From: a bacterium
Lineage (GTDB): Bacteria; Bacteroidota; Ignavibacteria; Kapaibacteriales; UBA7675
NCBI GenBank assembly: GCA_030430495.1
Contig: JAUIKM010000013.1
Span: forward strand, 62,001-126,000
Length of the DNA: 64,000 nucleotides
Direction of reading: 5' to 3'
Shown: positions 18,813 to 63,476 of the stretch, piece after piece
Layout: each line of letters starts with the position of its first letter
Position numbering within the stretch: position 1 is the stretch's first letter
The notes under the pieces: model-generated
What the model was told of the DNA's origin: nothing
Seen by the model: the letters and a program-made list of their open reading frames with translations, nothing else
Database searches by the model: none
Made by a program: the position numbers and the translations under genes

Positions 18813-21800
18813 TTAAAACTCGCCGAACTCTGCGTCGGAATCGCTGTCGATGCTGTTGTACCGGACGCCGACGGGCACGTCGGTCAGCGTCAGGTCGGCA
18901 TTGATCGTCACGGCGTTTAACAGTTCGATGTAGTCGTCGGCCATCGTTTTGATGCTTTCCGCCCGGAACAAATCCGTCGAGTATTCAATGCCCAGAATAA
19001 GTCTGTCCTCATCCTGAACAAACTCAAAACTCAGATCGAACTTGGCCGTGCGCGGTGCAAAATCGTGATGCCGCAATGATACGTTTTCGTCAAGACGCAC
19101 GTTCGTCGAGGCAACATTCTGCAACAGCAGCATGACGTCAAAGAGCGGGCTGCGCGACGCGTCGCGTTCGTGTTCCAGGTCCTCCACGAGGAGTTCAATC
19201 GGATATTCCTGGTGGGCGTAGGATTCCAGACACATTTGTTTAACCTCCGCCAGCAGCTCCGCAAAGGTCTGCGTTGCCCGTGGACGCGCACGCAGCGCCA
19301 GCGTGTTGACGAACATGCCGGGCATGCGCTCCAGCTGCACGTGATTGCGGCCCGCCACCGGCGTGCCGACCACGATGTCGTTCTGGCCGGAATAACGATG
19401 CAGCATGGCGTAAAAAGCGCTCAACAGGAACATGAACAAGGTCGCTTCCTGACGTCGCGCCGCTTCGTTGACCGCGGCCGCCTGTTCGCTGCTCAGGACA
19501 AAACTGCTGCGACTGCCGGCGTATCCGCGGCGGGCCGGACGCGGGAAATCGGTCGGCAGTTCAAGCGGACGCGGCGCGTCGGCAAACTGTGCGCGCCACC
19601 ACGCGCCCTGCGCCTGCCCCGCCGGAGAAGCCAGGTATTGCGCCTGCCAGCGCGCAAAATCTTTGTAGTGCAGTTCGGGCCGCGGCAGCTCCTCGCCGCG
19701 GTAGAGCGCCGCCAGTTCTTCGGTAAAAATCGCGGCGGACGTTCCGTCAAACACGATGTGATGCACATCGAAGACAAGCATGAGTCCGCCCGAATCCAGT
19801 TGCAACAATGCGACGCGCAGCATCGGCGCGCGCTCCAGGTTAAACGGACGCGTAAAATCGTGCACCGCGGCTTCAATCCCGTCGTCCGCGGCCGTCAGCG
19901 TTTCAAGCTCAAATTCAACCGTCGGGGCAACGCGCTGCCGCGGGCCGTCGTCGGTCATGACAAATGAGGTGCGGAACACTTCGTGGCGCGCAACCATCAG
20001 ACGGAGCGCCTGTTCAAGCCGCTCAACATCAATCTCCCCTTCCACCCTGAGAGCCGAAACGAGGTTGTAGGCCAGGTTCTCGCCGCCTTCAACCTGATTG
20101 ATGATCCACATCGGGCGCTGGCTGTAGGAAAGCTCGTAGACTTCCCGCTCGGGCGCCGGCTCGATCGGCGCGGCGTGGAGGTCCACGACGCCGTCGGTGC
20201 GCCCGGCCAGTCGTTCGTCGACGCCGGCGGCCATACGACGCACCGTGCTGAAAGTCAGAATGTCTTTGAATTGCAGGCGGATATTAAACTCCTGCTCGAT
20301 CCGGCTGGTAACCATCGTGCCGAAGAGCGAGTGACCGCCGAGCGAAAAGAAATCGTCGTCGAGTTTAACGGCCTCGATCTTGAGGACCGCCTGCCAGATT
20401 CGGGCGATGCGCTGCTCCGTCGGCGACCAGCTCTCATCGACTTCAGCCGCTTCAATTGCGGGACCGAGATCCGGCGCCTTGAAGTAGTCCTGCTCGGCCG
20501 CGCCGTTGTTATGCACGCCGTTTTGCGGCAGCGGCGCCGCGCCGCTCCGCAGCGAAGCCTGCCACTGCTCGTATTCTTCATCGGTCCAGGCCGGACGCGC
20601 CCATACGCGCAGCCCTTCAAACTGGTATGACGGCAGATGGATGCGGCGGCCGGCGCGGTCCTGATGCCAGGCCTGCCAATCCACGGCGTAGCGACAGGAA
20701 TACAGTTCGCCGGTCAGCACGGCCGCGCCGGAATACTGGCGCGGATCAAAGCGCAGCACGTCGAACATGACGTCGCGATCGGCGGGCTGCCACGCGTCCA
20801 GCGCCTGACTGAGTTCGCCGGCGGGACCGAGTTCCACAAAGAGGACTTTGCCGTCGGCGCTCTCGCGATCGACCAGCCGCTCCACCCGCGCCCGCATGTC
20901 GGCGGGCGTCTCCACCGCATTAAAACCGCGCGCCTGTTCGAGCGCCGCCGCGGGAGCCAGTTCGTTGAGGATCAGACGCACGCTGATATCGCCCGCGCCG
21001 AGACCCAGAATGCGCTTGCTGAGCACGCCGCGTTGTTTGAGACTGTGCCAGGCGCAGAATTGCCCGACCAGGGTGGCGCAGGCCGGCAACTCCAGCGAAG
21101 CGTCCAACTGCCCGCTCGGAAATTGTTCCAGCGCCTGTTTAAAGTCGGAATCAATGTCCGCCTGCAACTCGATGTCCGCGCGTGTCCAGCCGCTGTTGGA
21201 CGAACAAATGAACAGCATGCCGCCGCTCTCGTCCGCTCCGGCGTCAAACGAGACGTCGTCGGTCGGCACGTGCTGCAACATGTCGTACAGTTCTTCGGTC
21301 GAACGCGCCACCAAAACACAGCGATAGCGGAAGTGACCGCGGCCGGTGTTTAGGGTAAAGGCGATATCCGCCACGTCGGCCCCGGGATATTCCGCCAGGT
21401 GCTCGCGCAGTTTATTGATGTTCTGTCCGACGCCGTCGGCGCGTTTGGAAGAAATGCAGACCGGATAAGCGGCTTCGCGCGGTCGTGTGTCCGCGGGACG
21501 TTCCGGCGCTTCTTCCAGCAGAACGTGCACGTTGTTGCCGGCGAATCCCCAGGAAGAAACTCCGGCGCGCAATGGCTCGCCGTTCCAGCGCTGCCAGGGC
21601 GTCAGCCCGGTGTTAACAAAAGTGGCTGAATTGGCAAAGTCAATAAATGGGTTGGGTTTTTCAAAATGCAACGAGGGATACAACTCGCCGTGGCGCAGAC
21701 TTAAAACGGCTTTGAGCATGCCGGCCATTCCGGCGACTTTGTCGGTATGACCGATATTCGTTTTAACACAGGTCAAGGCGCAGAAGTGTTTATCGTCCGT

Positions 21801-22763
21801 GTGGCGACGCATGGCTTTGTCGATGGCGGCCACTTCAATCGGATCGCCCAGGCGCGTTGCGCTGCCGTGCGGTTCGATATAGGTTATGGTGCGCGGGTCG
21901 ACCTCGGCATTGCGCCAGGCATCCAGCATCACCTCCGTCTGCGCAACGCTGCTGGTGGCCGTCAGGCTGGCCGCACTGTTGCCGGATGAATTGCTCGCCC
22001 CGGCGCGGATGACCGCCCAGATATTGTCGTCGTCCGCAATGGCTTTTTCCAGCGGTTTTAACATCACCGCCGTTACGGCTTCGGACGAACCCGAACCGAC
22101 CGAGTCCGCATTAAACGTGCGCGTTTTGCTGTCGTCGGAGGTAACGCCGACGTCGTACGTCAGCCCTTCGCGGATGGGGTCGAGCATGATGCGCGACGCC
22201 ACCACCAGCGCGGTCTCACCCAGACCGGCGCGCAGATAATCACAGGCCTGCACAACCAGAAACAGCGCCGTGGAACAGCCGGTGTCCGACACCCAGGCCG
22301 GCGCTTTGGTGTTTAAGTAGCGCGAAATGCGACCGGCGATTGAAAAGGGCGTGTTGCCGGAAAACATGGCCGGCTCAAAATGGTCGAAGAGTTTGTAGTA
22401 GTGGTAATCCGCGTTTGCGCCCAGCACCAGCATGCGGCTGCCGTCGACCGAACCGGCGGAATAACCGGCGCTTTCAATGCACTCGACCGCACTCTCCATC
22501 ATGATGCGCTGGTGCGGGTCGATCTGTTCGGCCTCGCGGCGCGAAATGTTAAAATACTTGTAGTCAAAGTGGTCGACGTTGTCGAGCCAGCCCATCGGCC
22601 GGAATCCGGTTGAGAGCAGCGGCAGGGTCGAATTGCAGATGCGTTTTTTGGAAATGGGCGTCACCGCATCGCCGCCGGAGCGCAGTTGCGCGTGAATGGC
22701 CTGTATGTCCGATGCAAGCGGAAAACGGCCCGACATTCCGATAACAGCTATGTCGTGTTTCAT
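18813..22763 (-). CDS. Hybrid PKS-NRPS protein KS / degenerate AT / carrier / C, 1316 aa
   Basis: I start at ATG 22763, giving MKHDIAVIGMSGRFP at the beginning of the KS. An open frame continues upstream to 22928 but runs into the preceding gene. KS spans 1-420 with catalytic Cys163 in DTGCS, His299 in PHGSATRLGDP and His339 in KTNIGHTDKVAG. Residues about 430-730 align with an acyltransferase and its post-AT linker (LPSYQFEGLRVW), but the catalytic GHSxG is replaced by GLGAG (587-591), so the nucleophilic serine is lost. The carrier has GGHS with Ser812. A condensation domain with HHIVFDG follows, and the protein ends in an acidic tail (DSDSDAEFGEF). There is no KR, DH or ER. The extender unit must come in trans; the adjacent hydroxymalonyl-ACP type cassette is the obvious candidate. 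The C domain probably serves the A domain of the next protein. A paralogue of the same plan lies at 59451-63476. Confidence 0.95.
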   Translation of the reverse strand: MKHDIAVIGMSGRFPLASDIQAIHAQLRSGGDAVTPISKKRICNSTLPLLSTGFRPMGWLDNVDHFDYKYFNISRREAEQIDPHQRIMMESAVECIESAGYSAGSVDGSRMLVLGANADYHYYKLFDHFEPAMFSGNTPFSIAGRISRYLNTKAPAWVSDTGCSTALFLVVQACDYLRAGLGETALVVASRIMLDPIREGLTYDVGVTSDDSKTRTFNADSVGSGSSEAVTAVMLKPLEKAIADDDNIWAVIRAGASNSSGNSAASLTATSSVAQTEVMLDAWRNAEVDPRTITYIEPHGSATRLGDPIEVAAIDKAMRRHTDDKHFCALTCVKTNIGHTDKVAGMAGMLKAVLSLRHGELYPSLHFEKPNPFIDFANSATFVNTGLTPWQRWNGEPLRAGVSSWGFAGNNVHVLLEEAPERPADTRPREAAYPVCISSKRADGVGQNINKLREHLAEYPGADVADIAFTLNTGRGHFRYRCVLVARSTEELYDMLQHVPTDDVSFDAGADESGGMLFICSSNSGWTRADIELQADIDSDFKQALEQFPSGQLDASLELPACATLVGQFCAWHSLKQRGVLSKRILGLGAGDISVRLILNELAPAAALEQARGFNAVETPADMRARVERLVDRESADGKVLFVELGPAGELSQALDAWQPADRDVMFDVLRFDPRQYSGAAVLTGELYSCRYAVDWQAWHQDRAGRRIHLPSYQFEGLRVWARPAWTDEEYEQWQASLRSGAAPLPQNGVHNNGAAEQDYFKAPDLGPAIEAAEVDESWSPTEQRIARIWQAVLKIEAVKLDDDFFSLGGHSLFGTMVTSRIEQEFNIRLQFKDILTFSTVRRMAAGVDERLAGRTDGVVDLHAAPIEPAPEREVYELSYSQRPMWIINQVEGGENLAYNLVSALRVEGEIDVERLEQALRLMVARHEVFRTSFVMTDDGPRQRVAPTVEFELETLTAADDGIEAAVHDFTRPFNLERAPMLRVALLQLDSGGLMLVFDVHHIVFDGTSAAIFTEELAALYRGEELPRPELHYKDFARWQAQYLASPAGQAQGAWWRAQFADAPRPLELPTDFPRPARRGYAGSRSSFVLSSEQAAAVNEAARRQEATLFMFLLSAFYAMLHRYSGQNDIVVGTPVAGRNHVQLERMPGMFVNTLALRARPRATQTFAELLAEVKQMCLESYAHQEYPIELLVEDLEHERDASRSPLFDVMLLLQNVASTNVRLDENVSLRHHDFAPRTAKFDLSFEFVQDEDRLILGIEYSTDLFRAESIKTMADDYIELLNAVTINADLTLTDVPVGVRYNSIDSDSDAEFGEF

Positions 22764-22833: not shown

Positions 22834-23913
22834 TCAGCCGGCAAGCTCGGAGGTGCGACGCCCGGCAAATGGCGGCTCAGCCGGCAGATCCAGCTCGATA
22901 TAGTCCGGGTATGCGCCGTCGTTTGCAAGTGCGTGTTCCAGCATCACGCCGCCGCCGGGCAATTCCCCCGCTTCGCTGAAACCGGCAAATTTGTAGGTCA
23001 TGAACATCATGCGGTTGCGGTCCGTGTGTTTAAACTCCGCTGCAAGCCCGGCGTTGAGCGCACGGGCGTTGTTGATCAGGAAGTTTAACAATACCGTCCC
23101 GACGCCGCGCGCCATCACGCGGCAGGACATGAGCAACAGTTTGATATGCCAGGTGGACTCGCGGCGCTCCAGCAGCGCCACGCCGATCTTGCCGTAGGTG
23201 CCGTAGCGGTCCGCCAGTTCAGCCACGTAGAGCTGGTGCTCGTCCGAATCGAGCAGTTCCAACAGCTCATCATACGAGTAGGTATAACCGGTTGCGTTTA
23301 ACTGGTTGGTGCGCACCGTCAGCTCTTCCACGCGTTTAAGGTCTTCCGGCACGGCCGCGGACACGCAAAATTTCATGTTGAGCGAGCGCAAAAATTCCTG
23401 GTTGTTTTCGAAGCGCTCGCTCTCCTCGTTGCGCTGCGCATCGGCCTGATACAGCAGGCGGCGCTGCGCCGATTCGGCCGTCACAAATCGCGGCATAAAC
23501 TGCGGCAGGTCCAGCATTCCGGCTATCTGATCAACATCGTAGATCTGCACTTCGTCGTGGACAAACTTCACTTCGTCGCGCTCGTAGGCGGTGTCGTCAA
23601 AAAATGCAATTGCGTCGAAGCCGATGTTGATCGCCTCCTTGATTTTTGCAATTGATTCCGACTTCGCGCCCCAGTTGATCTGCGGGTAGAGGAAAAAATG
23701 ATCGAGTCCAAACTCCTCCACCTTTTTCCAGGCGTCGGCATGGGTATTTTTGCTCGCGATCGATTGTAAAACGCCGCGGCGATCCAGTTCCTCCATGATG
23801 GCGCGGATATTGTCGCGCAGCACCAGCTCGTCGCCCTCGGTCAGTGTGCCGTGCCAGACGGTGTTGTCCAGGTCCCAGACGACGACTTTGATTTTAACTG
23901 TATCAGCAGACAT
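22834..23913 (-). CDS. fkbH: FkbH-family HAD-like glyceryl transferase/phosphatase
   Basis: 359 aa. ATG at 23913 (MSADTVKIKVVVWDLDNTVW) is preceded by AAGGA at good spacing; a TTG seven codons earlier is unlikely. The HAD nucleophile motif is DLDNT (Asp14, Asp16), and SKNTHADAW follows as in the FkbH family. The C-terminal third looks like the family's GNAT-like domain (LLLMSCRVMARGVGTVLLNF). Known members take 1,3-bisphosphoglycerate, dephosphorylate it and load the glyceryl group on a dedicated ACP, the first step to hydroxy- or methoxymalonyl-ACP. The ACP and both dehydrogenases of that pathway lie just upstream, so the same role is inferred here. It is the last cassette gene before the KS/pseudo-AT protein, 70 bases away, and probably co-transcribed with it. 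Confidence 0.93.
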   Translation of the reverse strand: MSADTVKIKVVVWDLDNTVWHGTLTEGDELVLRDNIRAIMEELDRRGVLQSIASKNTHADAWKKVEEFGLDHFFLYPQINWGAKSESIAKIKEAINIGFDAIAFFDDTAYERDEVKFVHDEVQIYDVDQIAGMLDLPQFMPRFVTAESAQRRLLYQADAQRNEESERFENNQEFLRSLNMKFCVSAAVPEDLKRVEELTVRTNQLNATGYTYSYDELLELLDSDEHQLYVAELADRYGTYGKIGVALLERRESTWHIKLLLMSCRVMARGVGTVLLNFLINNARALNAGLAAEFKHTDRNRMMFMTYKFAGFSEAGELPGGGVMLEHALANDGAYPDYIELDLPAEPPFAGRRTSELAG

Positions 23914-23969
23914 TGTTTTGGTCCTTTTTGTCAAACGACAGAGTGCAGTGAGAGATCGATTTTGTGGAT

Positions 23970-24938
23970 TCAGGCGCGCAGCAGCACGCCGCTCCAGGCG
24001 GCAACCGGGCTGTTGTTCATCAGCAGCACCGATTCGCCGGGGTTGATCATGCCCGTGTCGAGCCCGGTTTTGTAGTTTAACAAGATGTCGGCACAGCCCA
24101 GATGGCCGTACTGCGAAAGGTTGAGTTTGCAGACAGGTGAAATGCTGCAGTTGAGCGCCATTTCGTAGTAGTCAAAGGCGCGGCGCGCAATGTTCTGCAT
24201 CATGATGTGCGGCAGCTCGCCGATTGAGAGACCGTTGCGTTGCAGCAGACGCGTGTTCAAGTCCACGAATCGATTTTTGCTCTCGACCGCCAGTTCAAAG
24301 CCGTATTTGCGCGGGTCTGAAACCTGCTCCACGTACTCGGCAAAGGTGCGATCGCGATACTCCATCGCAAAAAGGTCCCAGTAGCGGCCGTTGGATTCGA
24401 TTTCCATGTCGACGAGTGCGTTGTTCTCGCCGCGGCCCACCAGCGCGGCTATGCCGCCGTCGCCCTGAATTGTGACCGGCATGCGGAAGCGGCGCGGCGA
24501 ATACTGTCTGTGGCCGTAGGCGATCAGAACATATCTGGCGCGGCGGTTGGCCTTCAGGATATCCTGCGCCAGGCGCAGCGCAGCGGTGCTGTCGACGCAG
24601 CCCAGATCGCCGAGGGCGAAGGTCAGCGCGCGTTCGGCGCCCAGCGCATACTGCAGACGCGTCGCCTCTGAACTGATAAACGTTTCGGGGATGCGCGGCC
24701 GGATGTAGATGATGCAGTCGATCTCATCGGCGGCGACGCCCGCCTGCGCCATGACTTCCTCCGCCGCGCGCTGCGCCAGGTCGAAGGCGCTCAGCCCCTC
24801 CGCGTCGTAAAACGCGTCGATGCCCATCTGGTCAAAGTATTCGCGTTCGGCGTCGCTCAGCGCGGCGTATTCGGGCAGGTCGCCCGCCGGAAAGCGCGTG
24901 CCGGCGATGTATTCGCGTATGGCGTGGATATTTATCAC
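23970..24938 (-). CDS. KAS III-like (FabH-fold) protein with non-canonical active site
   Basis: 322 aa. The start is GTG at 24938, with GGAG six bases upstream. The thiolase-fold nucleophile is present as Cys114 in DLGCVDSTAALR. The usual HQAN box is not: the segment reads HIMMQN (244-249). The usual asparagine of the GN motif is also replaced, giving YGHLGCAD (His279, Asp284). KAS III homologues with altered triads include acyltransferases that move acyl groups between carriers or onto other acceptors (CerJ, ChlB3-type), rather than decarboxylating condensing enzymes. Placed inside a hydroxymalonyl-ACP cassette and next to a KS module with a dead AT, it may act as the trans acyltransferase, but this is inference. 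A role in starter formation is the main alternative. It is not part of the classical FkbG-K set. Confidence 0.85.
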   Translation of the reverse strand: MINIHAIREYIAGTRFPAGDLPEYAALSDAEREYFDQMGIDAFYDAEGLSAFDLAQRAAEEVMAQAGVAADEIDCIIYIRPRIPETFISSEATRLQYALGAERALTFALGDLGCVDSTAALRLAQDILKANRRARYVLIAYGHRQYSPRRFRMPVTIQGDGGIAALVGRGENNALVDMEIESNGRYWDLFAMEYRDRTFAEYVEQVSDPRKYGFELAVESKNRFVDLNTRLLQRNGLSIGELPHIMMQNIARRAFDYYEMALNCSISPVCKLNLSQYGHLGCADILLNYKTGLDTGMINPGESVLLMNNSPVAAWSGVLLRA

Positions 24939-25023: not shown

Positions 25024-26166
25024 TCAGTCGATAATCAGATCGGGATTTTTAATGGCCTGTTCACCGATCAGCAGCTCCTGCATCTCGGTTGAACCTTCGA
25101 TGATTTCCATCACGCGCGCATCGCGGAAGTAGCGCTGCACGGGGCTGGATTCGTGGCAGCCGAGCGCTCCGTGGATCTGCACGGCGTGGTCGGCCGCGCG
25201 GTTGGCGGCGGCGGAGGCGTGGTACTTGGCCATGGCCGTCCGCATGATTGCTTTGGGGCTGCCGCCGTCGCGCAGGGCGGCGGCGTCCTCACACAGCAGC
25301 GCGGCCGTTCTGGCGTCGAGGGCGATGGCGGCGGCGCGCCGGCGAATCAGCTGGAAATCCCGCAGTTTGGAACCGAATTGTTCGCGCGTGTTGGCGTGCT
25401 GCGCCGCAGCGCGCAACGCTGCGCGGGCGATGCCCACGCAGCCCGCCGCCACGCTGAAGCGCCCGTTGTCCAGCGCGGTGTTGACAATCTGCAGGAATCC
25501 CAGCCCGCGCCGCCCCAGGACGTCGCGCTCGTCCACCGCACAACCGGACATCTCCATTTCAGCTACGAGCGAGGCGCGCGTGCCCAGCATGCCGTCGAGC
25601 GGGCCAAGCAGGAGGGATTTCCCTGCCTTTGAACGGTCCAGGAGGAATGCGCAGACGCCCTCCTCGCCGTCCGCCACCACCAGGAAAAGGTCGGCGCGCT
25701 GCCCGAAGGTCGTCCATTTTTTGCGGCCGGTCAATCGGTATCTGTCTCCGTCGCGGACGTAGCGCGTGTGCACGTTTTTGGCGTCGCTGCCGGTCAGTGG
25801 TTCGGACAGGGCAAAAGCGGCGATTTTGCGGCCGGAAGCGAGGTCAGGCAACAGACGCGTTTTTTGCTCGGGCGTGCCCCAGCGCGCTATCGTTTCGGAA
25901 ACCAAGGCCAGGTGCACGGTCAACAGACTGCGCATCGACGAACAGGCCTCGCCGACGGCCATGTTGAGCAGCATGACGCCGCGCTGGTCCAGACCGCGTC
26001 CGCCGAATTCCTCGGGGATGCTCAGGCCCAGAAAACCGGCCTCCGCCATGGCGCGAATGGCCGATTCAGGCACGGCGCCGTTGCGATCCCACTCGTCCGC
26101 GAAGGGTGCGATCTGTTCGGCCGCAAAAGCTTCAAATTCTGCGCGTAGTGCGTCGTAGCTTGCCAT
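25024..26166 (-). CDS. fkbI: Acyl-CoA/acyl-ACP dehydrogenase, FkbI type
   Basis: 380 aa. The start is ATG at 26166 (MASYDALRAEFEAFAAEQ); a longer open frame to 26376 overlaps the ACP gene and is rejected. The protein shows the full acyl-CoA dehydrogenase fold signatures: FALSEPLTGSDAK, RYRLTGRKKWTTFG, REQFGSKLRDFQLI, and the C-terminal QIHGALGCHESSPVQRYFRD followed by IIEGSTEMQ. In the FkbI/ZmaE pathway such flavoproteins oxidise the hydroxyl-derived carbon of glyceryl-ACP on the way to hydroxymalonyl-ACP. The gene begins 22 bases after the ACP stop and belongs to the same cassette. It contains none of the GTTWAAC heptamers so frequent in the flanking NRPS genes. Confidence 0.9.
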   Translation of the reverse strand: MASYDALRAEFEAFAAEQIAPFADEWDRNGAVPESAIRAMAEAGFLGLSIPEEFGGRGLDQRGVMLLNMAVGEACSSMRSLLTVHLALVSETIARWGTPEQKTRLLPDLASGRKIAAFALSEPLTGSDAKNVHTRYVRDGDRYRLTGRKKWTTFGQRADLFLVVADGEEGVCAFLLDRSKAGKSLLLGPLDGMLGTRASLVAEMEMSGCAVDERDVLGRRGLGFLQIVNTALDNGRFSVAAGCVGIARAALRAAAQHANTREQFGSKLRDFQLIRRRAAAIALDARTAALLCEDAAALRDGGSPKAIMRTAMAKYHASAAANRAADHAVQIHGALGCHESSPVQRYFRDARVMEIIEGSTEMQELLIGEQAIKNPDLIID

Positions 26167-26188
26167 AAAAAGTCCGTCCGATGCGGCC

Positions 26189-26455
26189 TCAGGCCGCGCT
26201 GTTGTTGCGTTTGCGTCCAACGAAGTCCGCGATGGCGTCGACGCTGCGGAAGTTCTGGAGATCCAGGTCGTCGTTTTCGACGGTAATTTTGAAGCTGTCC
26301 TCCAGGAAGGTGACGAGCTGCAGGGCGAACAGGGAGTTGACGAGGCCGTCGGCAAAGATGTCGTCGCCGTCGGCAAAGCGGGCGTCCTTGCCCATGTTGG
26401 ACTTGAAGTAGTCGCGAATGTCGGATTTCAGCTGGTCGTTGTCGTTGGCAGTCAT
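26189..26455 (-). CDS. fkbJ: Free-standing acyl carrier protein, FkbJ type
   Basis: 88 aa, ATG at 26455, with AAGGAA about 12 bases upstream. The phosphopantetheine site is GLVNSLFALQLV (Ser near residue 39). The residue before the serine is Asn instead of the common Asp, as in several ACPs of the hydroxy/methoxymalonyl pathway. It would carry the glyceryl, then the hydroxymalonyl group made by the neighbouring FkbH, FkbK and FkbI proteins, and hand it to a PKS module. It is the only free-standing carrier gene in the window. Confidence 0.93.
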   Translation of the reverse strand: MTANDNDQLKSDIRDYFKSNMGKDARFADGDDIFADGLVNSLFALQLVTFLEDSFKITVENDDLDLQNFRSVDAIADFVGRKRNNSAA

Positions 26456-27705: not shown

Positions 27706-48998
<21,293 letters not shown>

Positions 48999-49113
48999 AG
49001 GGTGTCCGTGAGAACAGAGCTGTCGGGAGCTGCACAAGCCGCCGGAGAGCAGGCGGCAGATTGAGTTTGGACCTTGGACGTCACGTGCGGATGCGGCGCG
49101 GCATGCCTTTGGG

Positions 49114-51399
49114 TCATTGCCGCGCTCCCCGCGCAACTATTTCATTCAGGACGGCATCCACCTGCTCGTCGCTGAGTCGGTCGATATCATCGGGCCGCAA
49201 CGTCGCAAGATCAATTCCGGCCGGCGGCGCGGCGGAATCTTCCCTCGGCGCAAGCAGCTGCCGCGCCAGGGCCCGCGGCGTTTCAAACTCCCAGGCGGCG
49301 TCGGATGAGAGTCGGACGTCAAATCGTTCGGAGGCATCGCCCAGCAGGCGCTGCGTCGTGAGCGAGTCCAGACCGATGCGCTGCCAGCTTGCCGCGGCAA
49401 AACCGACGCCGGGCTCCAGCTGCAGTTCGCGTTCCAGCCACGCGCGCATCCATGCCAGAATCATTGCTTCGTCGACTTCACCCGAGTCGTTTTGGCTTGC
49501 CTTCTTGTTTGTCACTGCGAGCGAAACTTCAGGTTTGCCGTTCAGGCCATTCCGGATCGCGCCGGAAGCGCCGTTTGCGGCAGCGCCGCCTTTGTTTTTT
49601 GCGTGCCCGTTTGCGGCCGGCGGCGACATCAGGTCGTCGGCGGCGGTCAGTGTGCCGTCCCGCCAGGCGGCGCGCGTGGCGCTGCGCTGCAACTTGCCGC
49701 TCGAGGTTTTGGGCAGCGCGTTGGGACGCAGCAGCGCGATGTCGTGCAGACGAATTTCAAACTCGGCGGCGACGGCGGCGGCAACGGCCTCGCGCAGTTC
49801 GGCGGGCGTCACGGAGCGAAGTGCGCTGCGCCGCACTTCAAGTGCCAGGCAGACGGCTTCGCCGGCATCCGTGCGGACGGAAAAGGCGGCGCAGGCGTCC
49901 GCCTTCAGCGCGGGGTGTGCGCGTACCGCGCAGCGCTCCAGGTCCTGCGGATAGAGGTTGCGGCCCCGCACGATCAGCAAATCTTTCATGCGCCCGGTCA
50001 CGAACAACTCGCCGCCGCTGAGGAATCCCAGGTCGCCCGTGCGCATCCAGCCGCCCTGATCCGCGGAGTTGTTGTCGGCCGTCGCGGCGTCAAACTGTAA
50101 GGCGGCGGCCACCGGATTCTGCCAGTAGCCTGCGGCGACAATCTTACCGCGCACCCAGATTTCACCGATGGCGTCTTCACCGAGTCGGCGCTGCGAGCGC
50201 GGATCGACAACGGCAATCTCAGTGCCGACGTGGGAGCGGCCGCAGCCGACGACGGCGCGGGCGGCGGGATCAAAGGGTGCAACGAGTTCCAGCCTGTTCT
50301 GTTCGAGCGCCGCGGCGCGCAGGTGCAGCACGCGCGGCAGGTCGTCGCGCCCCGCCGCACTGACTTTCAGCGTGGCTTCGGCCAGGCCGTAGCCGGGGCA
50401 GAAGGCCTCGGCGCGGAAGCCGCCCGGCGCACATGCGCGGCTGAAATCTGTCAGGGTCCGCAGGTCGATCGGTTCGGAGCCGTTGACCGCCACGCGCCAG
50501 CCGCTCAGGTCGAGGCCGGCGATATCCGCCTCGTCGATGCGGGCGGCGCAGAGCGCGTAGGCAAAGTTGGGCGCGCAGCAGTGCGTGCCGCGGTAGGCGT
50601 GCATGGCGCGCAGCCAGCGCACCGGACGCTGCAGAAAATCGGCGTGGTGCATCAGGACGCAGGGCACGCCGACAAACGGCGCGGCCAGCACGCCGTAAAT
50701 CAGTCCCATGTCGTGGAAAACGGGCAGCCAACTGACAATCACGGAGTCGGCCGTGTGCCGCCAGCCGCGGTGCATGTCTTCGATGGTCCACACAAGATTG
50801 TCGTGACTGATGACGACGCCGCGCGGGTCCGAGGTGCTGCCGGAGGTATACTGCAGGTAAGCCGGATCGTCTTTCCGCGGCGGCGCCAGATATTCGAGGT
50901 CCGCGCCGTCAAAGCGCCGCGCATCTTCCGCGCGAATGAAGCGCAGACTATCCGGCGCGACTTCGCGCACCTGATCTTCGTACTGCGCAGGCGCCATAAC
51001 AAAGGCGGCATCCGCGTCCGCGATCATCAATTGCAGGCGCGCGGCCTTGCGGTTGCGGCGCGGCGGATACGCCGGCACGGCGATCATTCCCGCGAAGGCA
51101 CAGGCAAAAAAGGCCGTCACAAAGTCGGGACCGGCGGGATGCAGGATGAGAACGCGCGCGCCGCGGCGCTCCAGCGAATTCAGCAGCGCCGCCATGGCAG
51201 CCACGCGGCGGCTCAGCTGCGCATAGGTCAGATGCAAATACTCTTCCTCCCCGTCGCGCAGAAAGCGATAAGCTATCGCGTCAGGCGTTTCCCGGGCGCG
51301 AAACAGCAGAGCCTCGCAGATGGTCGCAAAACGCGGCGCATCGAACGAGGAATCGGAAGAGAGGTCCGGTTGACGTAGCTGTGGAGTTGCGGAGATCAT
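49114..51399 (-). CDS. Fatty acyl-AMP ligase fused to an acyl carrier protein (FAAL-ACP)
   Basis: 761 aa. ATG at 51399 (MISATPQLRQPDL) follows AGGTGA. The adenylation domain fills about 1-590: YLQYTSGSTSDPRGVVISHDNL, the FAAL-typical SWLPVFHDMGLIYG, PGYGLAEATLKVS, GWMRTGDLGFL and LPKTSSGKLQRS. A flexible linker rich in Asn and Gly follows, then an ACP with GLDSLTTQRL (Ser near 677). FAALs adenylate a free fatty acid and load it on a carrier, here in cis, to start a lipopeptide. The next gene begins 115 bases downstream with another carrier and a C domain, which fits lipoinitiation. It is the first gene after a 596-base gap and probably starts the operon. The linker contains a copy of the GACAAACAAGA element. 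Confidence 0.94.
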   Translation of the reverse strand: MISATPQLRQPDLSSDSSFDAPRFATICEALLFRARETPDAIAYRFLRDGEEEYLHLTYAQLSRRVAAMAALLNSLERRGARVLILHPAGPDFVTAFFACAFAGMIAVPAYPPRRNRKAARLQLMIADADAAFVMAPAQYEDQVREVAPDSLRFIRAEDARRFDGADLEYLAPPRKDDPAYLQYTSGSTSDPRGVVISHDNLVWTIEDMHRGWRHTADSVIVSWLPVFHDMGLIYGVLAAPFVGVPCVLMHHADFLQRPVRWLRAMHAYRGTHCCAPNFAYALCAARIDEADIAGLDLSGWRVAVNGSEPIDLRTLTDFSRACAPGGFRAEAFCPGYGLAEATLKVSAAGRDDLPRVLHLRAAALEQNRLELVAPFDPAARAVVGCGRSHVGTEIAVVDPRSQRRLGEDAIGEIWVRGKIVAAGYWQNPVAAALQFDAATADNNSADQGGWMRTGDLGFLSGGELFVTGRMKDLLIVRGRNLYPQDLERCAVRAHPALKADACAAFSVRTDAGEAVCLALEVRRSALRSVTPAELREAVAAAVAAEFEIRLHDIALLRPNALPKTSSGKLQRSATRAAWRDGTLTAADDLMSPPAANGHAKNKGGAAANGASGAIRNGLNGKPEVSLAVTNKKASQNDSGEVDEAMILAWMRAWLERELQLEPGVGFAAASWQRIGLDSLTTQRLLGDASERFDVRLSSDAAWEFETPRALARQLLAPREDSAAPPAGIDLATLRPDDIDRLSDEQVDAVLNEIVARGARQ
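49502..49521 (-). repeat. Dispersed short element, copy 3
   Basis: On the minus strand it reads CTCGCAGTGACAAACAAGAA, in frame (VTNKK) in the linker between the FAAL domain and its ACP. Confidence 0.55.
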
Positions 51400-56077: not shown

Positions 56078-58933
56078 TCAGGACAGCCCGCGCTCAAATT
56101 TGATGCTCGCGGCCAGTTCGGGCAAGTCGATCAGCGGATTGCGGTTGCCCTGCACCTCGTAGATCGCCTTGTTGCGGTGTTTTTCGTAGCCGTCCACCGC
56201 ATACTTTTCATGCCAGTGCAACAGATTTTCGAGATCCCCGCTCGTGTAGTCCTTGATTTTACGGGGATAACGCAGCAGAAAATACAGCGTGGCGCGCGCC
56301 GCGGCGCCCTTGCCTGATTCCGGTTCAAAACGACCGCCGTCGCTCTTGCCGCATTCGACGCGCACGCCCTCGCTCCTGTCCGGATCGTAGTCCGCAAAGT
56401 CGATGTAGGGCGAGTTTGAGCGCGAGGAATTGCAACGCATTTCACAGGAAAACAGGTGATGCAGATCGCTCTTCATCGGGTTGGCCTTGCCGAACCAGGA
56501 CTGCGGCACCACGTGTTCGCAGTTGAACGGATTGTCCGACTCGATGGTCTCGAGAATGCCCCGGCGCTCGGCTTCGGTGTAGAGCGATTCGGCGTGAATG
56601 AAACGATTGATCGCTTCGTTGCGACGGCGCTCCGCTTCAAAGTCGCGGCGGATCACTTCGGCCGGATCCATTTCCGATCCGTCGTAAATACTTTTGAGTT
56701 TGCCGTTGGGCTGCAGGTCCACCCAGGCATACAGGTGGTTGTGGCGCGCCGTGGCGTAGGACAATTGGTTGACATGCGTGCGCGTCAGCAGACTGCTCAA
56801 ACGCTCAAACAGGTCGGCCGCCGTAAAGTCAATATCGGCATAGTAACGCGCCACGCTCTCCCTGTCGCCGTCCTCGTCGTAGTACTCCCTGCCGTCGATG
56901 ATAATTGCGGGTGCGCCGCCGTCCGTGCCCGCCGCACCGGAACCGCCACTTCCGCCGGCGTCCTTGTCCGTTGCCGTGTTGTCGACCTTGCCTCCGCCGC
57001 CGACAGTTACCGCGGCGCCGGTTTTGATCCCCAGCTTAACAAGCGCTTTGTGCAGCGCGTCGACCAATTGCGGCAGGTCGGCCGAGCAATCGCATTTTTT
57101 ATCCGGGCTCGACGATGTGCCGTCGGTGACGACCGCCTGCGTGTTGTACGTCAGGCGCATGACGAGCGGCACGTGATCCGAAACGTCGCGCACAAATCCG
57201 GACACGGACTTGTCGAGGCGAATAATCGCGGCATCGTCGTTGCTGATCTGCCCGAGCGCCGCGTCGGTGCTGACGATGATGTGATCGATGAGCGATCTGT
57301 ATCTGTCGCCCACGTATGAAATCACGTCGCCCTGCGCGTCGTCGGCCGTCAGAGTGAACAGATCGGGCGAATCCGTTAAGTCGCTCAACACCGAACCGTC
57401 GAGCTCCTGGTTGAAGTCGCCGCCAAGAATCACCGGGATCCCCTCCTTACCGCGCAGATCCTCGATGATGGCGGCCAGGATATTGGCCGAGAGCCTGCGG
57501 CGCTCGCGGCTGAGTTCGTCGCCGAAAGCCTTGAGGTGCACCACGATCATCAGGAACTCCGTGTCCCCGTCTTCTTCCCGAACCTTGCAGTGAGCAAAAA
57601 GCGGCTCACGCCCGCCGGCAAACGCCTGTTTTACAGTACCGTCGACGGTGACGGTCTGTTTAAGCACGCGGCTGTACTGTGCGTTGATGTCGCTGCGCAG
57701 GGTCACGGACGTCGTCTCCAGATCGTAGAGCACCGCCAGGTCCTGCGCGCCGGAGGCGTCCAGATGGACGTAATCCATGTTCTGACCGCGCAGCCTGAGC
57801 GCCTGTTTAAGTCGGTCGAGTCCGCCGCGTTCCACTTCGCTTAAACCCAGCACGTCCATCGAAAGCCCGGCGACGACGTCGGCCACCTTGTCCACGCGGG
57901 CGGCGGACACGCCGTCGTTAAAGTGTTCAATGTTCCAGAATCCGATATCGGCAAAACGGCGGTTGCCGGCCCACTGCGGCAGTTCTATTTCGGCGCCGGC
58001 GGAATCGCCCACCAGGCCGGACACGTCAAAGAAACCCAGATAAGGCGAAGTGTCCGTCACCGTGCGCAGGACCTTGCGCGCCGCGGCGGTCGCCTCATTG
58101 CGCGAATTGCTCATCGAAATCAGGTGGGCCACGATAGCGGAAATGCGAATGCCTTCATTCGTCGCCGTTTTGGTTTTTTCATCGGAATACCAACCGGCGT
58201 GGTGCAGCGCCACAAGTTCCCAGGCATTGTTAAACACGCCCGAACCGGACGAGCCCGGCTCCGTGTCCGTCTGGTAGTGCAACACCTTGTCGTAGACGTA
58301 GGTCACTTCATTGTTCTGCAGCGCGACTTCTTTCATTCGGCCGCGCGGATGTTGAATGATGTTAACCGCTTCTTTGCGCGTTATCGTGGCGGGATTGCGC
58401 AGCAGGCGCACCGGCACAACGTCGTCTATGCCGACCATGTCGCAGCCGACGATGCTGAAATCGAGTTCCTCATCGGTAATGAACAACAGGTCCGGCCGCA
58501 GTTTAACGGTCACGGTTTCGCGGTCCTCTTCGTAGAAAAACTCGGCCACGCTGCCGTCGGATTCGTCATAGTCCCCCAGCACGTGGTTGTTTGTCATCAG
58601 GTAGCCGTTGCCGATTAAAATGCCGGTGCCCCAGGAGGTCGCTGTTGAAATGCGGCACACGGCGCGCGAACGGTCCGCGCCTTTGTACAGAAAACTCACC
58701 GGCAGCAGGTCGTTGCCCTGGCTGATTTTTTCGTAGTGCTGTGCAATTTTTACTTCGGCCTCGCGGCGCGCCGCTTCGTCCGCTGTAATTCGGTCAATGT
58801 CAACTTCTTCACCGAGCAGGCTCATAGCCCGGCGTTTAACAAGGTTGTTGAACTCGGCCGGACTGAGTTTTTGTGCGCCGCCGCGACCCTGAGTTTCGTT
58901 AACCAGGGAATGGGCCTTTGTTTTAACAGGCAT
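56078..58933 (-). CDS. Trypsin-like protease fused to an EEP nuclease and an endonuclease I-type nuclease
   Basis: 951 aa. ATG at 58933 has AGGAG seven bases upstream. Three enzyme domains are fused. (1) A V8/trypsin-like serine protease, about 75-280: His117 in MTNNHVLG, Asp158 in ELDFSIVG, Ser229 in PGSSGSG. (2) An endonuclease/exonuclease/phosphatase (DNase I-like) domain, about 325-600: Asn333 (FWNIEHF), Glu366 (LSEVER), His466 (VVHLKA), Asp506/Asn508 (GGDFNQ), Asp550, and Asp586/His587 (SDHVPLV). (3) A beta-beta-alpha-metal nuclease of the endonuclease I type, about 680-935: His807 in EHVVPQSWF, then SDLHHLFSCEMRCNSSRSN. All catalytic residues appear intact. A Gly/Asp-rich linker (about 640-675) precedes the last domain. 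No signal peptide or membrane segment is seen, so cytoplasmic action or non-classical export is possible. The context (a natural-product cluster) does not explain it. A conflict or defence effector is the most attractive reading, but is inference. Confidence 0.93.
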   Translation of the reverse strand: MPVKTKAHSLVNETQGRGGAQKLSPAEFNNLVKRRAMSLLGEEVDIDRITADEAARREAEVKIAQHYEKISQGNDLLPVSFLYKGADRSRAVCRISTATSWGTGILIGNGYLMTNNHVLGDYDESDGSVAEFFYEEDRETVTVKLRPDLLFITDEELDFSIVGCDMVGIDDVVPVRLLRNPATITRKEAVNIIQHPRGRMKEVALQNNEVTYVYDKVLHYQTDTEPGSSGSGVFNNAWELVALHHAGWYSDEKTKTATNEGIRISAIVAHLISMSNSRNEATAAARKVLRTVTDTSPYLGFFDVSGLVGDSAGAEIELPQWAGNRRFADIGFWNIEHFNDGVSAARVDKVADVVAGLSMDVLGLSEVERGGLDRLKQALRLRGQNMDYVHLDASGAQDLAVLYDLETTSVTLRSDINAQYSRVLKQTVTVDGTVKQAFAGGREPLFAHCKVREEDGDTEFLMIVVHLKAFGDELSRERRRLSANILAAIIEDLRGKEGIPVILGGDFNQELDGSVLSDLTDSPDLFTLTADDAQGDVISYVGDRYRSLIDHIIVSTDAALGQISNDDAAIIRLDKSVSGFVRDVSDHVPLVMRLTYNTQAVVTDGTSSSPDKKCDCSADLPQLVDALHKALVKLGIKTGAAVTVGGGGKVDNTATDKDAGGSGGSGAAGTDGGAPAIIIDGREYYDEDGDRESVARYYADIDFTAADLFERLSSLLTRTHVNQLSYATARHNHLYAWVDLQPNGKLKSIYDGSEMDPAEVIRRDFEAERRRNEAINRFIHAESLYTEAERRGILETIESDNPFNCEHVVPQSWFGKANPMKSDLHHLFSCEMRCNSSRSNSPYIDFADYDPDRSEGVRVECGKSDGGRFEPESGKGAAARATLYFLLRYPRKIKDYTSGDLENLLHWHEKYAVDGYEKHRNKAIYEVQGNRNPLIDLPELAASIKFERGLS

Positions 58934-59450: not shown

Positions 59451-62400
59451 TTAAAGCTCCAGGATCTCGATGTCTTCATCCGCTGCGCCGCCGGCGACGG
59501 AACTGTCGTCCGTTCCGAGATCGATGTCGCCGATTTTAACAGCCGGATCCGCCGTCACGATGTCTATCAGGCGGCGCAGGTCGTCCACCAGCGCATCGAT
59601 GCTCGCAGCCTTAAACAAACTCTCGGCGTATTCGACGTCGAGTCTCAGGCCGCCGTCCGTCTCGTGGAAAATCAGCGTCATGTCGTAGCGCGAGGTCGGC
59701 GGAGCGATCGGATATTCGCGCAGTTCCAGTTCGTTGCGGCCGCGCACGCCTTCGCCCGCGTTGCCGGCCGGAATGCCCGCCACGTTAAACATGTGCAGCA
59801 CTGTGTCGAAGAGTGGATGACGCTCTTCGGTGCGCGACATTCCGAGTTCGTCCACGAGCGACTCAAAGGGATAATCCTGATTGTCGAACGCTTCCAGTGC
59901 GCTGCGCCGCACTTCCGCCATCACGTCTTTGAAGGTTGTATCTTCTTCAATCCGACCGCGAATCGCCAGCATGTTGGCAAACATGCCGGGAATGCGTTCG
60001 AGCTCGACGCGCTGCCGTCCGGCTATCGGCGTACCGACGACGACGTCGGGCGTTCCGCCGACGATGCGCAGCAGGGTCTGCCAGGCGCTCATCAGCGTCA
60101 TGAACAGCGTGCTGCTGTTGCTGCGCCCCAGTTGCAGCAGGGCCGCGGCGCGTTCCGCACCGAATTCATAGCTGCGGTTGCCGCCGACAAAACTGCGCGG
60201 CGCGCGCCGCTCAAAATCGCTGTTCAGGACGGCGCTCCGCGGACGATCCTTAAACAGCTCGCGCCAGTAGGCCGCCTGTTTCCGCCCCTGCTCGCCGTGC
60301 AGGAAGGCCTGCTGCCACATCGTGTAATCCTTGAAGTGGATCGCCAGTCCCGGCAGTTCGCGGTCGTGATAAAGCGCGTTGAAATCGTGCAGAAAAGCCG
60401 CCGAGGACGCGCCGTCGAAGATAATGTGATGGAAGTCGTACAGCAGAAAGTGGAAATCCGGGCGCACCCGCACCAGCAGCGCGCGCATCAGCGGCGCGCT
60501 GCTTAAGTCAAAGGGCTGAATAAACTCTTCGGCTATCTGCGCCAGTTCGGATTCGCGCGCCGTCCGGCGCTCCAGTGCAAAGTCCACCGCGTCGGCGATT
60601 CGCTGCACCGGCGCCCCGTCGACGCGGTCGATGCGCGTGCGGAAACTCTCGTGCCGTTCAATCAGGCGGCGGAAGCAGGTCTCAACGCGGTCGGCGTCCA
60701 GCGGACCAAATACTTTGATCGCCGACGGCAGGTTGAAGGTCAGATCGTCGTCGTCCATCATGTCCTGGAACACCTGAATGCCGCGCTGACTGCTGGCCAG
60801 CGGATACCACTCCGCTTTGGCCGCCGGTTCAATCGGCTCGTAGCGCTCCGTCCGCCCCTCGCGCACGATATTGTCGACGCCGCGCGCCAAAGCGCGGATC
60901 GTGCTGAACGTGAAAATGTCCTTGACGTAGAGTTTAATATTCCACAGCTGTTCAATTCTGTTGGCGACCATCGTGCCGAAGAGCGAGTGACCGCCCAGGC
61001 TGAAGAAGTCGTCGTCGAGTCCGATGTTCTTTCGCTGAAGCAGTTGGCTCCAGATTTCGCCCACGCGGCGCTCCGTCTCGCTCCAGTCGGACTGGTCGAC
61101 GCTCGTTTCCGTTGCCGCCGCGCCGCTATGCGCACCGTTTTGCGCTTCGGCAGCGCCGTTTGTCGCGCTGTTGCCCTTGCTCTCCTTGTTGTCCTGCGCG
61201 CCGTTCTGTTTAAGCGGCGCGACGCTTTTACCGGATTTTGCGGCTTCCTGCAGCGCCAGATAGTGTTCCCATTCCTCGTCGCTGTAGGCCTCGCGGTACC
61301 AGCAGGAAGTCTTCTCAAAGTTATAGGCGGGCAGGTCGATGCGGAGGCCGCCCTGCATGCGGTGGAACTCGCTCCAGTCGGGCGTATAACCGGCTTCGTA
61401 GAGCTGTTGAAGCAGCTCCAGATAATCCTGCCCGTCCGCCTGTTTAATCAGGCTGTAGTACAGCTCGGCATCCGGCATGTCGAGCGCTGCCAGCGCTGCG
61501 CCCAGGATGCCGCCGCGCGTCAGTTCAATGCATCCCAGTCGCTCGCCGGCGCCTTCGTTTTCAACAAAACGGCGCAGGCGTTGCGGCAGATCGGCGGGCA
61601 GTGACGGGACGGCGTTTTTCACCTGTTCCACGGCGGTCGCTAAACTGATGTCGTCCAGAATCACGTTCACCGCCGTTTCACCGACGCCGACGCCGAGCAG
61701 GTTGTGCGGGCGCACGCCGCAGGCGCACATAAGCTCGTAGTTGGCGATGGACGCCAGCAGTTGTTGCACGGCGGGCAGCGCGCGGTCGGCGGCTTCGATC
61801 TGGCCGCTCAGTTTCTCAAAGCTGTCGTTAAACAGACTGAAACGGCAGCGCATTTCGGCCAGCCAGTCGTTAAACAACGCTTCGGCTTCGGACGGACTTG
61901 CGGCGTGCGGCGCGCCGGAAAACAGGAAAATCAAGCTGTTAAGCGCCTCGGGTACACGCCCCTCCAGCTCTTCCGACGCCGCGTTTGTCAACTGCGTCTC
62001 AAGTTGTTTAACATTTTCGACCACAAAAGCACGGCGATAGTTAAAGTGGCTGCGCCCGGCGTTCTGTGTGCGCGCCACATCCTGAATGTGCAGGTCGGGC
62101 TGTGCGGCCGCCGCCGCCAGCGAACGCATGTTTTCACGCACGCCTTCCGCCCGACGCGAGCTGACCGTCACCACCGTCGGCCCCGCCGCGCGAAACACAT
62201 CCGGGCGCTCGGGGGCTTCTTCCAGCAGAACGTGGACGTTGTTGCCGGCAAAGCCATACGACGACACGCCCGCGCGGCGTCGGCCGGAATACGGGTTTTC
62301 CCAGGCGCGCAGCTCGGTGTTGATAAAAGCGGCGGAGTCGTCAAAGTTGATAAAGGGATTCGGTTTTGTGAAGTGCAGCGAGGGAAAAAGCTCGCGGTGG

Positions 62401-63476
62401 CGCAGCGAAAGCACCACTTTGCTCAGTCCGCTCAAACCGGCCACCTGATCCGTGTGCCCGATGTTTGTTTTAACGCTGGAAACGCCGCAGAAATGTTTAT
62501 CGCCGCTGAACTGGCGCAGCGCCAGGTTAAGTCCTTTGATTTCAATCGGATCGCCCAGCTGCGTGCCGCTGCCGTGAGCCTCGAAGTACTCGATGCCGCG
62601 CGGATCGATACCGGCGCGACGCCAGGTTTCAACCAGCAGTTTCGACTGCGCCGTGCTGCTCGTGGCGGTTAAACTGGCGGAAGTCTGACCGGAGGAATTG
62701 TTGCCCGCGGCCAGGATTACGGCCTGCACCGGGTCGCCGTCTTTAAGCGCCTGATCCAGCGGTTTAAGCAGAACCGACACGATGGCTTCGGCACTGCCGG
62801 AACCGGTTGAATCGGCGTTGAAACTGCGCGTTCGACCGTCGTGTGAAGTTACGCCGACGTCCATAAAGTTGCGTTTGGGGTGAATGTGCAGCACCACGCG
62901 CGCGCCCAGCACCAGCGCCGTATCGACGCGTCCGAGCTGCAGCTGGTCGACGGCCATGTTAACGCCCATCAGGCCGGAGGAGCAGCCGGTGTCAACCAGC
63001 ATCGTCGGCCCCTGCATGTTAAAAAAGCGCGCAATGCGTCCCGCCACGGCAAACTGGGTATTGCCGCTGATCATATGCGTTTCCGCGCTGGTCAGGTGAT
63101 TCTGATATTCATAGGTGGCATTGGTCACGATAACGGCGGTGCGGCTCTCGTAGAACTGCTCGGCGGGACAGGCCGCGCTTTCTATCGCCTCCCAGGCCAG
63201 CTCCATCATCAAACGCTGGTGCGGGTCCATGCCCTGCGCTTCGCGCAGTGAAATGTTAAAAAAGCGGTGATCAAAGGTGTCGACTTCGCGCAGCCGCCCC
63301 ATGTCCATTGCTTCTTCTTCGAGGAATGGCAGCGTAGAACGCTGAAAACGCTCTTTGCTGACGGGGGCGATGCAGTCGCGCCCTTCGCGCAGCACCTGGT
63401 GGAATTCGCGCAGTGAATTGGCGCCGGGGAATCTCCCGGCCAGACCGATGATGGCAATCGGCATAGACTGACTCAT
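59451..63476 (-). CDS. Hybrid PKS-NRPS protein KS / degenerate AT / carrier / C, 1341 aa
   Basis: ATG at 63476 (MSQSMPIAIIGLAGRFPG) has AGGAG eight bases upstream. KS: Cys165 in DTGCSSG, His301 in AHGSGTQLGDP, His341 in KTNIGHTDQVAG. Residues about 430-730 are an AT-like region with post-AT linker (LPAYNFEKTSCWYRE), but GHSxG is replaced by GVGVG (595-599), so it lacks the serine needed for acyl transfer. An Asn/Gly/Ala-rich linker leads to a carrier (GGHS, Ser831) and a C domain with HHIIFDG (1016-1022). The tail is acidic (DEDIEILEL). It is a paralogue of the 18813-22763 protein with the same rare plan. It has no reductive domains. It follows an A-PCP protein by 83 bases, but downstream it is cut off from the other synthetases by four non-assembly-line genes. 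Its C-terminal C domain therefore has no adjacent partner. Confidence 0.94.
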   Translation of the reverse strand: MSQSMPIAIIGLAGRFPGANSLREFHQVLREGRDCIAPVSKERFQRSTLPFLEEEAMDMGRLREVDTFDHRFFNISLREAQGMDPHQRLMMELAWEAIESAACPAEQFYESRTAVIVTNATYEYQNHLTSAETHMISGNTQFAVAGRIARFFNMQGPTMLVDTGCSSGLMGVNMAVDQLQLGRVDTALVLGARVVLHIHPKRNFMDVGVTSHDGRTRSFNADSTGSGSAEAIVSVLLKPLDQALKDGDPVQAVILAAGNNSSGQTSASLTATSSTAQSKLLVETWRRAGIDPRGIEYFEAHGSGTQLGDPIEIKGLNLALRQFSGDKHFCGVSSVKTNIGHTDQVAGLSGLSKVVLSLRHRELFPSLHFTKPNPFINFDDSAAFINTELRAWENPYSGRRRAGVSSYGFAGNNVHVLLEEAPERPDVFRAAGPTVVTVSSRRAEGVRENMRSLAAAAAQPDLHIQDVARTQNAGRSHFNYRRAFVVENVKQLETQLTNAASEELEGRVPEALNSLIFLFSGAPHAASPSEAEALFNDWLAEMRCRFSLFNDSFEKLSGQIEAADRALPAVQQLLASIANYELMCACGVRPHNLLGVGVGETAVNVILDDISLATAVEQVKNAVPSLPADLPQRLRRFVENEGAGERLGCIELTRGGILGAALAALDMPDAELYYSLIKQADGQDYLELLQQLYEAGYTPDWSEFHRMQGGLRIDLPAYNFEKTSCWYREAYSDEEWEHYLALQEAAKSGKSVAPLKQNGAQDNKESKGNSATNGAAEAQNGAHSGAAATETSVDQSDWSETERRVGEIWSQLLQRKNIGLDDDFFSLGGHSLFGTMVANRIEQLWNIKLYVKDIFTFSTIRALARGVDNIVREGRTERYEPIEPAAKAEWYPLASSQRGIQVFQDMMDDDDLTFNLPSAIKVFGPLDADRVETCFRRLIERHESFRTRIDRVDGAPVQRIADAVDFALERRTARESELAQIAEEFIQPFDLSSAPLMRALLVRVRPDFHFLLYDFHHIIFDGASSAAFLHDFNALYHDRELPGLAIHFKDYTMWQQAFLHGEQGRKQAAYWRELFKDRPRSAVLNSDFERRAPRSFVGGNRSYEFGAERAAALLQLGRSNSSTLFMTLMSAWQTLLRIVGGTPDVVVGTPIAGRQRVELERIPGMFANMLAIRGRIEEDTTFKDVMAEVRRSALEAFDNQDYPFESLVDELGMSRTEERHPLFDTVLHMFNVAGIPAGNAGEGVRGRNELELREYPIAPPTSRYDMTLIFHETDGGLRLDVEYAESLFKAASIDALVDDLRRLIDIVTADPAVKIGDIDLGTDDSSVAGGAADEDIEILEL

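What the first reader, a model, noticed from the sequence alone, without database searches (positions are those of the whole stretch)
18813..22763. KS module whose acyltransferase lost its catalytic serine (GHSxG to GLGAG)
The region after the KS keeps AT-like length and the post-AT linker, yet the nucleophile elbow reads GLGAG at residues 587-591. The KS active site is also unusual (DTGC, not DTAC). The module has no way to load its own extender. Both AT-dead proteins in the window share this, so it is a stable design and not a random lesion.
Basis: partly seen in the sequence, partly recalled or inferred. Interest (0 to 1): 0.72.

Follow-up and report, generated by a model that had tools for sequence, protein, structure and literature searches.

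The report
Polyketide module with collapsed loading domain
A polyketide-making enzyme has lost the domain that normally feeds it building blocks, and a family of similar modules in three bacterial groups mostly sits beside an unusual transferase that probably does the feeding instead.

Summary
The AT lesion is real. The protein at 18813-22763 (-) is KS-linker-degenerate AT-ACP-C. The nucleophile elbow reads GLGAG, and no intact GHSxG follows the KS. But the AT is not full-length with one lost residue: about 150 residues are gone (177 versus 328 in an active AT of the same cluster), including the ferredoxin-like subdomain, the catalytic His and the Gln motif. In 24 aligned relatives the serine is Gly in 24/24, and their KS domains form one supported clade (100/97) beside KSs without any AT domain. 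So it is an old, stable design. DTGC is not diagnostic: only 13/24 have it, and Cys-His-His is intact.

Directly upstream lies a five-gene kit, HCDH-ACP-ACAD-KSIII-FkbH: the hydroxymalonyl-ACP genes plus a KASIII-like protein. Its Cys114/His279/Asp284 triad matches the ChlB3/CerJ acyltransferase pattern, not FabH, and is invariant in 28/28 rows. In 344 Streptomyces genomes, KSIII occurs in 22, all carrying FkbH; all 15 genomes with strongly matching dead ATs carry it.

Best reading (inferred, not shown): the KASIII-like protein loads the dead-AT module in trans with an ACP-borne hydroxymalonyl unit. Collapsed ATs are known (colibactin); a KASIII-type loader would be new as far as I could check.

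The parts
18813..22763 (-). P1: KS - KS/AT linker - degenerate AT - post-AT linker - ACP - condensation domain, 1316 aa
21495..22763 (-). P1 ketosynthase domain; Cys163 in DTGCS (22272-22286), His299, His339 intact
20664..21242 (-). P1 degenerate AT: collapsed hydrolase core (approximate limits)
   Evidence: alignment; predicted alpha/beta core, pLDDT mostly 60-89
20991..21005 (-). GLGAG, residues 587-591, in place of GHSxG; catalytic Ser position is Gly
20616..20636 (-). post-AT linker motif LPSYQFE
20226..20414 (-). P1 acyl carrier domain (GGHSL at 20325-20339)
18882..20147 (-). P1 condensation domain (HHIVFDG at 19743-19763)
22834..23934 (-). FkbH (TIGR01686, 259 bits): loads a bisphosphoglycerate-derived glyceryl unit on an ACP
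   Evidence: HAD motif DLDNT
23970..24938 (-). KASIII-like protein with Cys114/His279/Asp284; candidate trans-loader
25024..26166 (-). acyl-ACP dehydrogenase (Acyl-CoA_dh family); ORF listed as 25024-26376, likely start Met at 26166
26189..26455 (-). discrete acyl carrier protein, 88 aa
26722..27660 (-). 3-hydroxyacyl dehydrogenase of the hydroxymalonyl kit
59451..63476 (-). P2: second KS - degenerate AT - ACP - C protein; GVGVG at 61680-61694
40926..49136 (-). NRPS-PKS protein whose KS module keeps an active AT (GHSIG ... HAFH); internal comparison

Best explanation
P1 (and P2) are PKS extension modules inside an NRPS line whose own AT has decayed to a small structural remnant. The five genes just upstream of P1 make hydroxymalonyl on a discrete ACP: FkbH loads a glyceryl unit, HCDH and ACAD oxidise it, and no O-methyltransferase is present. 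The KASIII-like protein takes the acyl unit onto Cys114, helped by His279 and Asp284, and passes it to the ACP of P1 without decarboxylating it. The KS then condenses it with the upstream aminoacyl chain, giving an alpha-hydroxy-beta-keto unit that the C domain joins to the next amino acid. Shown: anatomy, AT collapse, triad, gene order, co-occurrence. Inferred: substrate, direction of transfer, use of P1's ACP as acceptor, product.
For: AT residues needed for catalysis are gone; Ser is Gly in 24/24. KSIII-like triad Cys/His/Asp with His-Asp spacing 5 and His at FabH's Asn274 position, invariant in 28/28 rows, as in ChlB3 C113/H296/D301 (PMC9573744) and the Cys/His/Asp triad of AfcL (PMC12186527); fold matches DpsC/NatS/ChlB3 at Z about 33. 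Gene order HCDH-ACP-ACAD-KSIII-FkbH-KS/dAT is the same in Chitinophaga vietnamensis, and the same five genes lie together in C. japonensis. Streptomyces: KSIII in 22/344 genomes, all 22 with FkbH (background 150/344, p 5e-9); all 15 genomes with a strong dead-AT match have KSIII. No AT hit at E<=1e-4 in the fetched stretches of 15 Streptomyces loci, mostly 20 kb. KS and KSIII distances correlate (r 0.74, 0/2000 permutations). Own genome has only three ATs: this cluster's GHSIG AT, one beside FabH (FabD-like), and one in another PKS. Brevibacillus has the kit without KSIII but with a discrete AT.
Against: No biochemistry. The nearest genome with dead-AT modules (G002, 91% complete) shows neither KSIII nor FkbH. 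Chitinophaga sp. YR627 has the dead-AT module without KSIII or kit, so other loading is possible. At least five Streptomyces genomes carry similar collapsed ATs (GHGIG and others) without a KSIII at the threshold used. The dead-AT profile was partly built from KSIII loci, so its counts are somewhat circular. Seven KSIII genomes gave no strong dead-AT match; of the five whose loci were examined for a KS, four have a KS without an AT remnant and one a KS with an active AT.
Confidence: 0.62

Rival explanations
1. Ordinary trans-AT loading: a FabD-type malonyl transferase, or the cluster's own AT at 40926-49136, loads malonyl onto P1 and P2; the KASIII-like protein does something else.
For: Discrete GHSLG ATs accompany related clusters in Chitinophaga and Brevibacillus; YR627 has a dead-AT module with no KSIII; the colibactin AT ClbG transfers aminomalonyl to several modules in trans (PMC5923317).
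Against: The own genome has no AT dedicated to this cluster beyond the cis one, which has GHSIG/HAFH as in the malonyl-CoA AT ZmaK and not GYSFG/GAAH of the hydroxymalonyl AT. It leaves the hydroxymalonyl kit next to P1 without a user.
Confidence: 0.2
2. Tetronate-type chemistry: the KASIII-like protein joins glyceryl-ACP to a polyketide/peptidyl thioester and releases the chain.
For: FkbH, ACP and a FabH-like protein do this in tetronates (Mad16, PMC7489565).
Against: The kit here also has both oxidases, which in tetromadurin belong to the methoxymalonyl kit and not to the tetronate set; P1 is followed by further NRPS modules with a TE at the end, so no early release is needed; several Streptomyces loci have KSIII and a dead AT without FkbH in the fetched 20 kb. 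Not compared by sequence with Mad16.
Confidence: 0.08
3. The KASIII-like protein is a true decarboxylating condensing or priming enzyme, as in DpsC-type starters.
For: DpsC is among the best fold matches (Z 33.4, tied with ChlB3 33.2).
Against: FabH's Asn274 is replaced by His and its His244 by Gln in the window (His or Gln in relatives), and Asp is invariant five residues on; the line already has a FAAL-like AMP-binding loader for priming.
Confidence: 0.07

Closest known systems
Colibactin modules ClbC/ClbK with the discrete AT ClbG
   Same: KS modules with a shortened region after the KS (solved chains 8xbl, 8cjh align over it); an ACP-borne rare extender (aminomalonyl) is put on in trans (PMC5923317). 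That their AT is inactive is from my own knowledge.
   Different: The loader is an AT; here the candidate loader is a KASIII-like protein and the unit is probably hydroxymalonyl.
Zwittermicin A hydroxymalonyl-ACP pathway with ZmaA-AT
   Same: Kit of FkbH, ACP and two dehydrogenases giving hydroxymalonyl-ACP (PMC4207774, PMC6395733).
   Different: Zwittermicin uses an active cis AT (GYSFG/GAAH); P1's AT is dead.
KASIII-type acyltransferases ChlB3, CerJ, AfcL
   Same: Thiolase fold with Cys/His/Asp triad in place of Cys/His/Asn.
   Different: They move starter, ester or peptidyl groups; loading an extender unit on a modular PKS is not described in the papers I could search.
trans-AT polyketide synthases
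   Same: Module without a working AT; KS clade adjacent to KSs lacking any AT domain.
   Different: An AT remnant of about 177 aa is kept, and no dedicated discrete AT was found in this genome.

Membership tests
Active cis-AT domain (PF00698) | GHSxG serine, catalytic His, ferredoxin-like subdomain | tested here: not met
trans-AT PKS module | KS module without functional AT | tested here: met
trans-AT PKS module | KS groups with KSs of modules that have no AT domain | tested here: met
   sister clades, both 100/97, away from cis-AT KSs; sample limited to loci found here, presumed trans-AT
trans-AT PKS module | discrete AT in cluster or genome | tested here: not met
   own genome: cluster cis-AT, a FabD-like AT beside FabH, and one AT in another PKS; shared use of the FabD-like AT not excluded
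KASIII-type acyltransferase (ChlB3/CerJ) | Cys/His/Asp triad with His-Asp spacing of 5 | tested here: met
   C114/H279/D284; 28/28 rows (PMC9573744)
KASIII-type acyltransferase (ChlB3/CerJ) | thiolase fold of KASIII type | tested here: met
   pLDDT 84.7; Z 33.2 to ChlB3, 31.5 to CerJ; fold shared with condensing KASIII
KASIII-type acyltransferase (ChlB3/CerJ) | acyl transfer without C-C bond formation | not testable with these tools
   needs enzyme assay
FabH condensing enzyme | Cys-His-Asn triad | tested here: not met
   Asn274 position is His, His244 position is Gln in window
Hydroxymalonyl-ACP kit | FkbH, discrete ACP, HCDH, ACAD, no O-methyltransferase between them | tested here: met
Hydroxymalonyl-ACP kit | product is hydroxymalonyl-ACP | not testable with these tools
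   inferred from zwittermicin and tetromadurin pathways
Tetronate glycerate kit | FkbH + ACP + FabH-like plus acyltransferase and dehydratase, chain release | tested here: inconclusive
   FkbH, ACP and a KASIII-like gene present, both oxidases present; no sequence comparison with Mad16

The most novel reading that the evidence does not exclude
A class of PKS modules in which a KASIII-fold acyltransferase, not an AT, loads an ACP-borne extender unit in trans onto modules whose AT has collapsed; found in at least three bacterial groups.
Probability: 0.5. Interest if true: 0.72.

Novelty: new variant of a known kind. Interest (0 to 1): 0.62.

Why it matters
Every way of choosing an extender unit on modular PKSs that I know of goes through an AT fold. 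A different fold doing this job would widen the rules used to predict polyketide structures from genomes, and would offer a loader for ACP-borne hydroxymalonyl that works in trans. It would also explain clusters that prediction tools would call broken.

Tried and rejected
Single-residue lesion: rejected, about 150 residues are missing. DTGC as a marker: rejected. Recent decay of the cluster's own AT module: rejected, P1/P2 KSs fall in another clade than the cis-AT KS. KSIII as a general partner of FkbH: rejected, FkbH is in 150 of 344 Streptomyces genomes and KSIII in 22. KSIII in the window's phylum: only this genome among 395. Loci L097-L101 with KSIII and dead AT but no FkbH in the fetched 20 kb: their three genomes (G464, G476, G764) carry FkbH elsewhere; genes near L098 are aromatic-precursor genes, no second extender kit seen. 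S. eurythermus locus as source of eurystatin (an alpha-ketoamide from that species, PMC8154582): a lead only; hydroxymalonyl would add one carbon too many unless one is lost. Literature: the ten searches found no KASIII-type extender loader, but subscription papers are mostly absent. Model of KS-dAT is poor in the KS part (mean pLDDT 64), so only the AT remnant was read.

Full report
Observation. P1 (18813-22763, minus strand, 1316 aa) is KS - linker - degenerate AT - post-AT linker - ACP - C. The elbow reads GLGAG at 587-591 and the only GxSxG in the protein lies in the KS. The paralogue P2 (59451-63476) reads GVGVG. An AT Pfam domain is not found in either, while the AT of the protein at 40926-49136 is found and has GHSIG.

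The lesion is bigger than reported. Aligned with two active ATs, P1, P2 and six relatives have 173-184 residues from AT start to the post-AT linker instead of 327-328. The missing block runs from behind the elbow to the ELGP motif and holds the ferredoxin-like subdomain and the catalytic His; the SGQG and Gln motifs are also lost. The KS/AT linker, the ELGP strand and the post-AT linker are kept. The structural model gives a small alpha/beta core there (pLDDT mostly 60-89) although the KS part of that model is poor.

It is a stable design. Relatives were found in a genome of the same family (G002), in Chitinophaga and in Streptomyces. In 24 aligned sequences the serine position is Gly in all. 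Their KS domains form one clade (100/97) next to KSs from modules without any AT, and apart from cis-AT KSs of the window cluster and of G002. Cys-His-His is intact; DTGC occurs in 13 of 24.

Neighbourhood. Upstream of P1 on the same strand are HCDH, a discrete ACP, ACAD, a KASIII-like gene and FkbH. FkbH, ACP and the two dehydrogenases are the hydroxymalonyl-ACP set of zwittermicin and of the first part of the methoxymalonyl route (PMC4207774, PMC6395733, PMC7489565); no O-methyltransferase lies between them. The same six genes in the same order occur in Chitinophaga vietnamensis (L078/L079), and the same five kit genes in the same order in C. japonensis (L040).

The KASIII-like protein. Cys114 is kept; FabH's Asn274 position is His279 and its His244 position is Gln248; Asp284 follows five residues on. 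Cys, His and Asp are invariant in 28 of 28 rows, a few of which are overlapping copies of one locus. ChlB3 has Cys113, His296, Asp301 and CerJ needs its Cys and His for malonyl transfer (PMC9573744); AfcL has a Cys/His/Asp triad and stores peptidyl thioesters (PMC12186527). The model (pLDDT 84.7) matches DpsC, NatS and ChlB3 best, but OleA and others are within one Z unit, so the fold alone does not decide.

Co-occurrence. In 344 Streptomyces genomes the KASIII-like protein is in 22 and FkbH in 150; all 22 are among the 150 (p 4.6e-9). Seventeen full-length dead ATs scoring 186 bits or more lie in 15 genomes, all with KSIII, and within about 11 kb where mapped. These p values ignore shared ancestry, and the dead-AT profile was partly built from those loci. 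With an independent five-row profile the Streptomyces copies beside KSIII score 55-102 bits, overlapping the other collapsed ATs (38-65 bits). So collapsed ATs also exist without this KSIII: L130-L133 and L144. Distances of KS-dAT and KSIII correlate over 20 loci (r 0.74).

Natural contrasts. Brevibacillus dissolubilis has the kit without the KASIII-like gene and has a discrete GHSLG AT. Chitinophaga sp. YR627 resembles the C. japonensis cluster but lacks the five kit genes, keeps the dead-AT module and a discrete AT. G002 has two dead-AT modules and neither KSIII nor FkbH, in a 91% complete assembly. Four Streptomyces loci (L102-L105) pair the kit and KSIII with a KS that lacks the AT remnant; L106 has an active AT nearby.

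Mechanism. Most likely the KASIII-like protein takes hydroxymalonyl from the discrete ACP and loads P1's (and perhaps P2's) ACP. The module has no KR by Pfam, so the unit would be an alpha-hydroxy-beta-keto amide; this is inference. Rivals are malonyl loading by a FabD-like AT, tetronate-type chemistry, and a condensing role for the KASIII-like protein.

Known or new. Dead-AT modules loaded in trans with an ACP-borne unit have a precedent in colibactin, where the loader is an AT (PMC5923317). I found no description of a KASIII-type extender loader in the open library; absence there is weak evidence. I rate it a new variant of a known kind.

Noticed in passing
window 56078-58933 (-): One 951-aa ORF joins a trypsin-like peptidase, an endonuclease/exonuclease/phosphatase and an endonuclease I domain, lying between the two parts of the NRPS region.
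   Followed up: no
L130, L131, L133 (GHGIG or GHGVG); L132, L144: Other Streptomyces PKSs carry collapsed ATs without a KSIII at the search threshold; three share a GHGxG elbow. A second, separate case of AT collapse.
   Followed up: partly
L041 (Streptomyces eurythermus JCM 4206) and L031 (S. achromogenes): Clusters with FAAL, NRPS modules, KS-dAT and the kit; possible eurystatin-type alpha-ketoamide clusters, since eurystatins come from S. eurythermus (PMC8154582).
   Followed up: partly
L028 versus L040 (Chitinophaga): Two related clusters differ by the presence of the five kit genes between the dead-AT gene and the next gene: a natural gain or loss experiment.
   Followed up: partly
L097-L101: Streptomyces clusters with KSIII and dead AT but no FkbH in the fetched 20 kb; the kit may be shared in trans with another cluster of the same genome.
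   Followed up: partly
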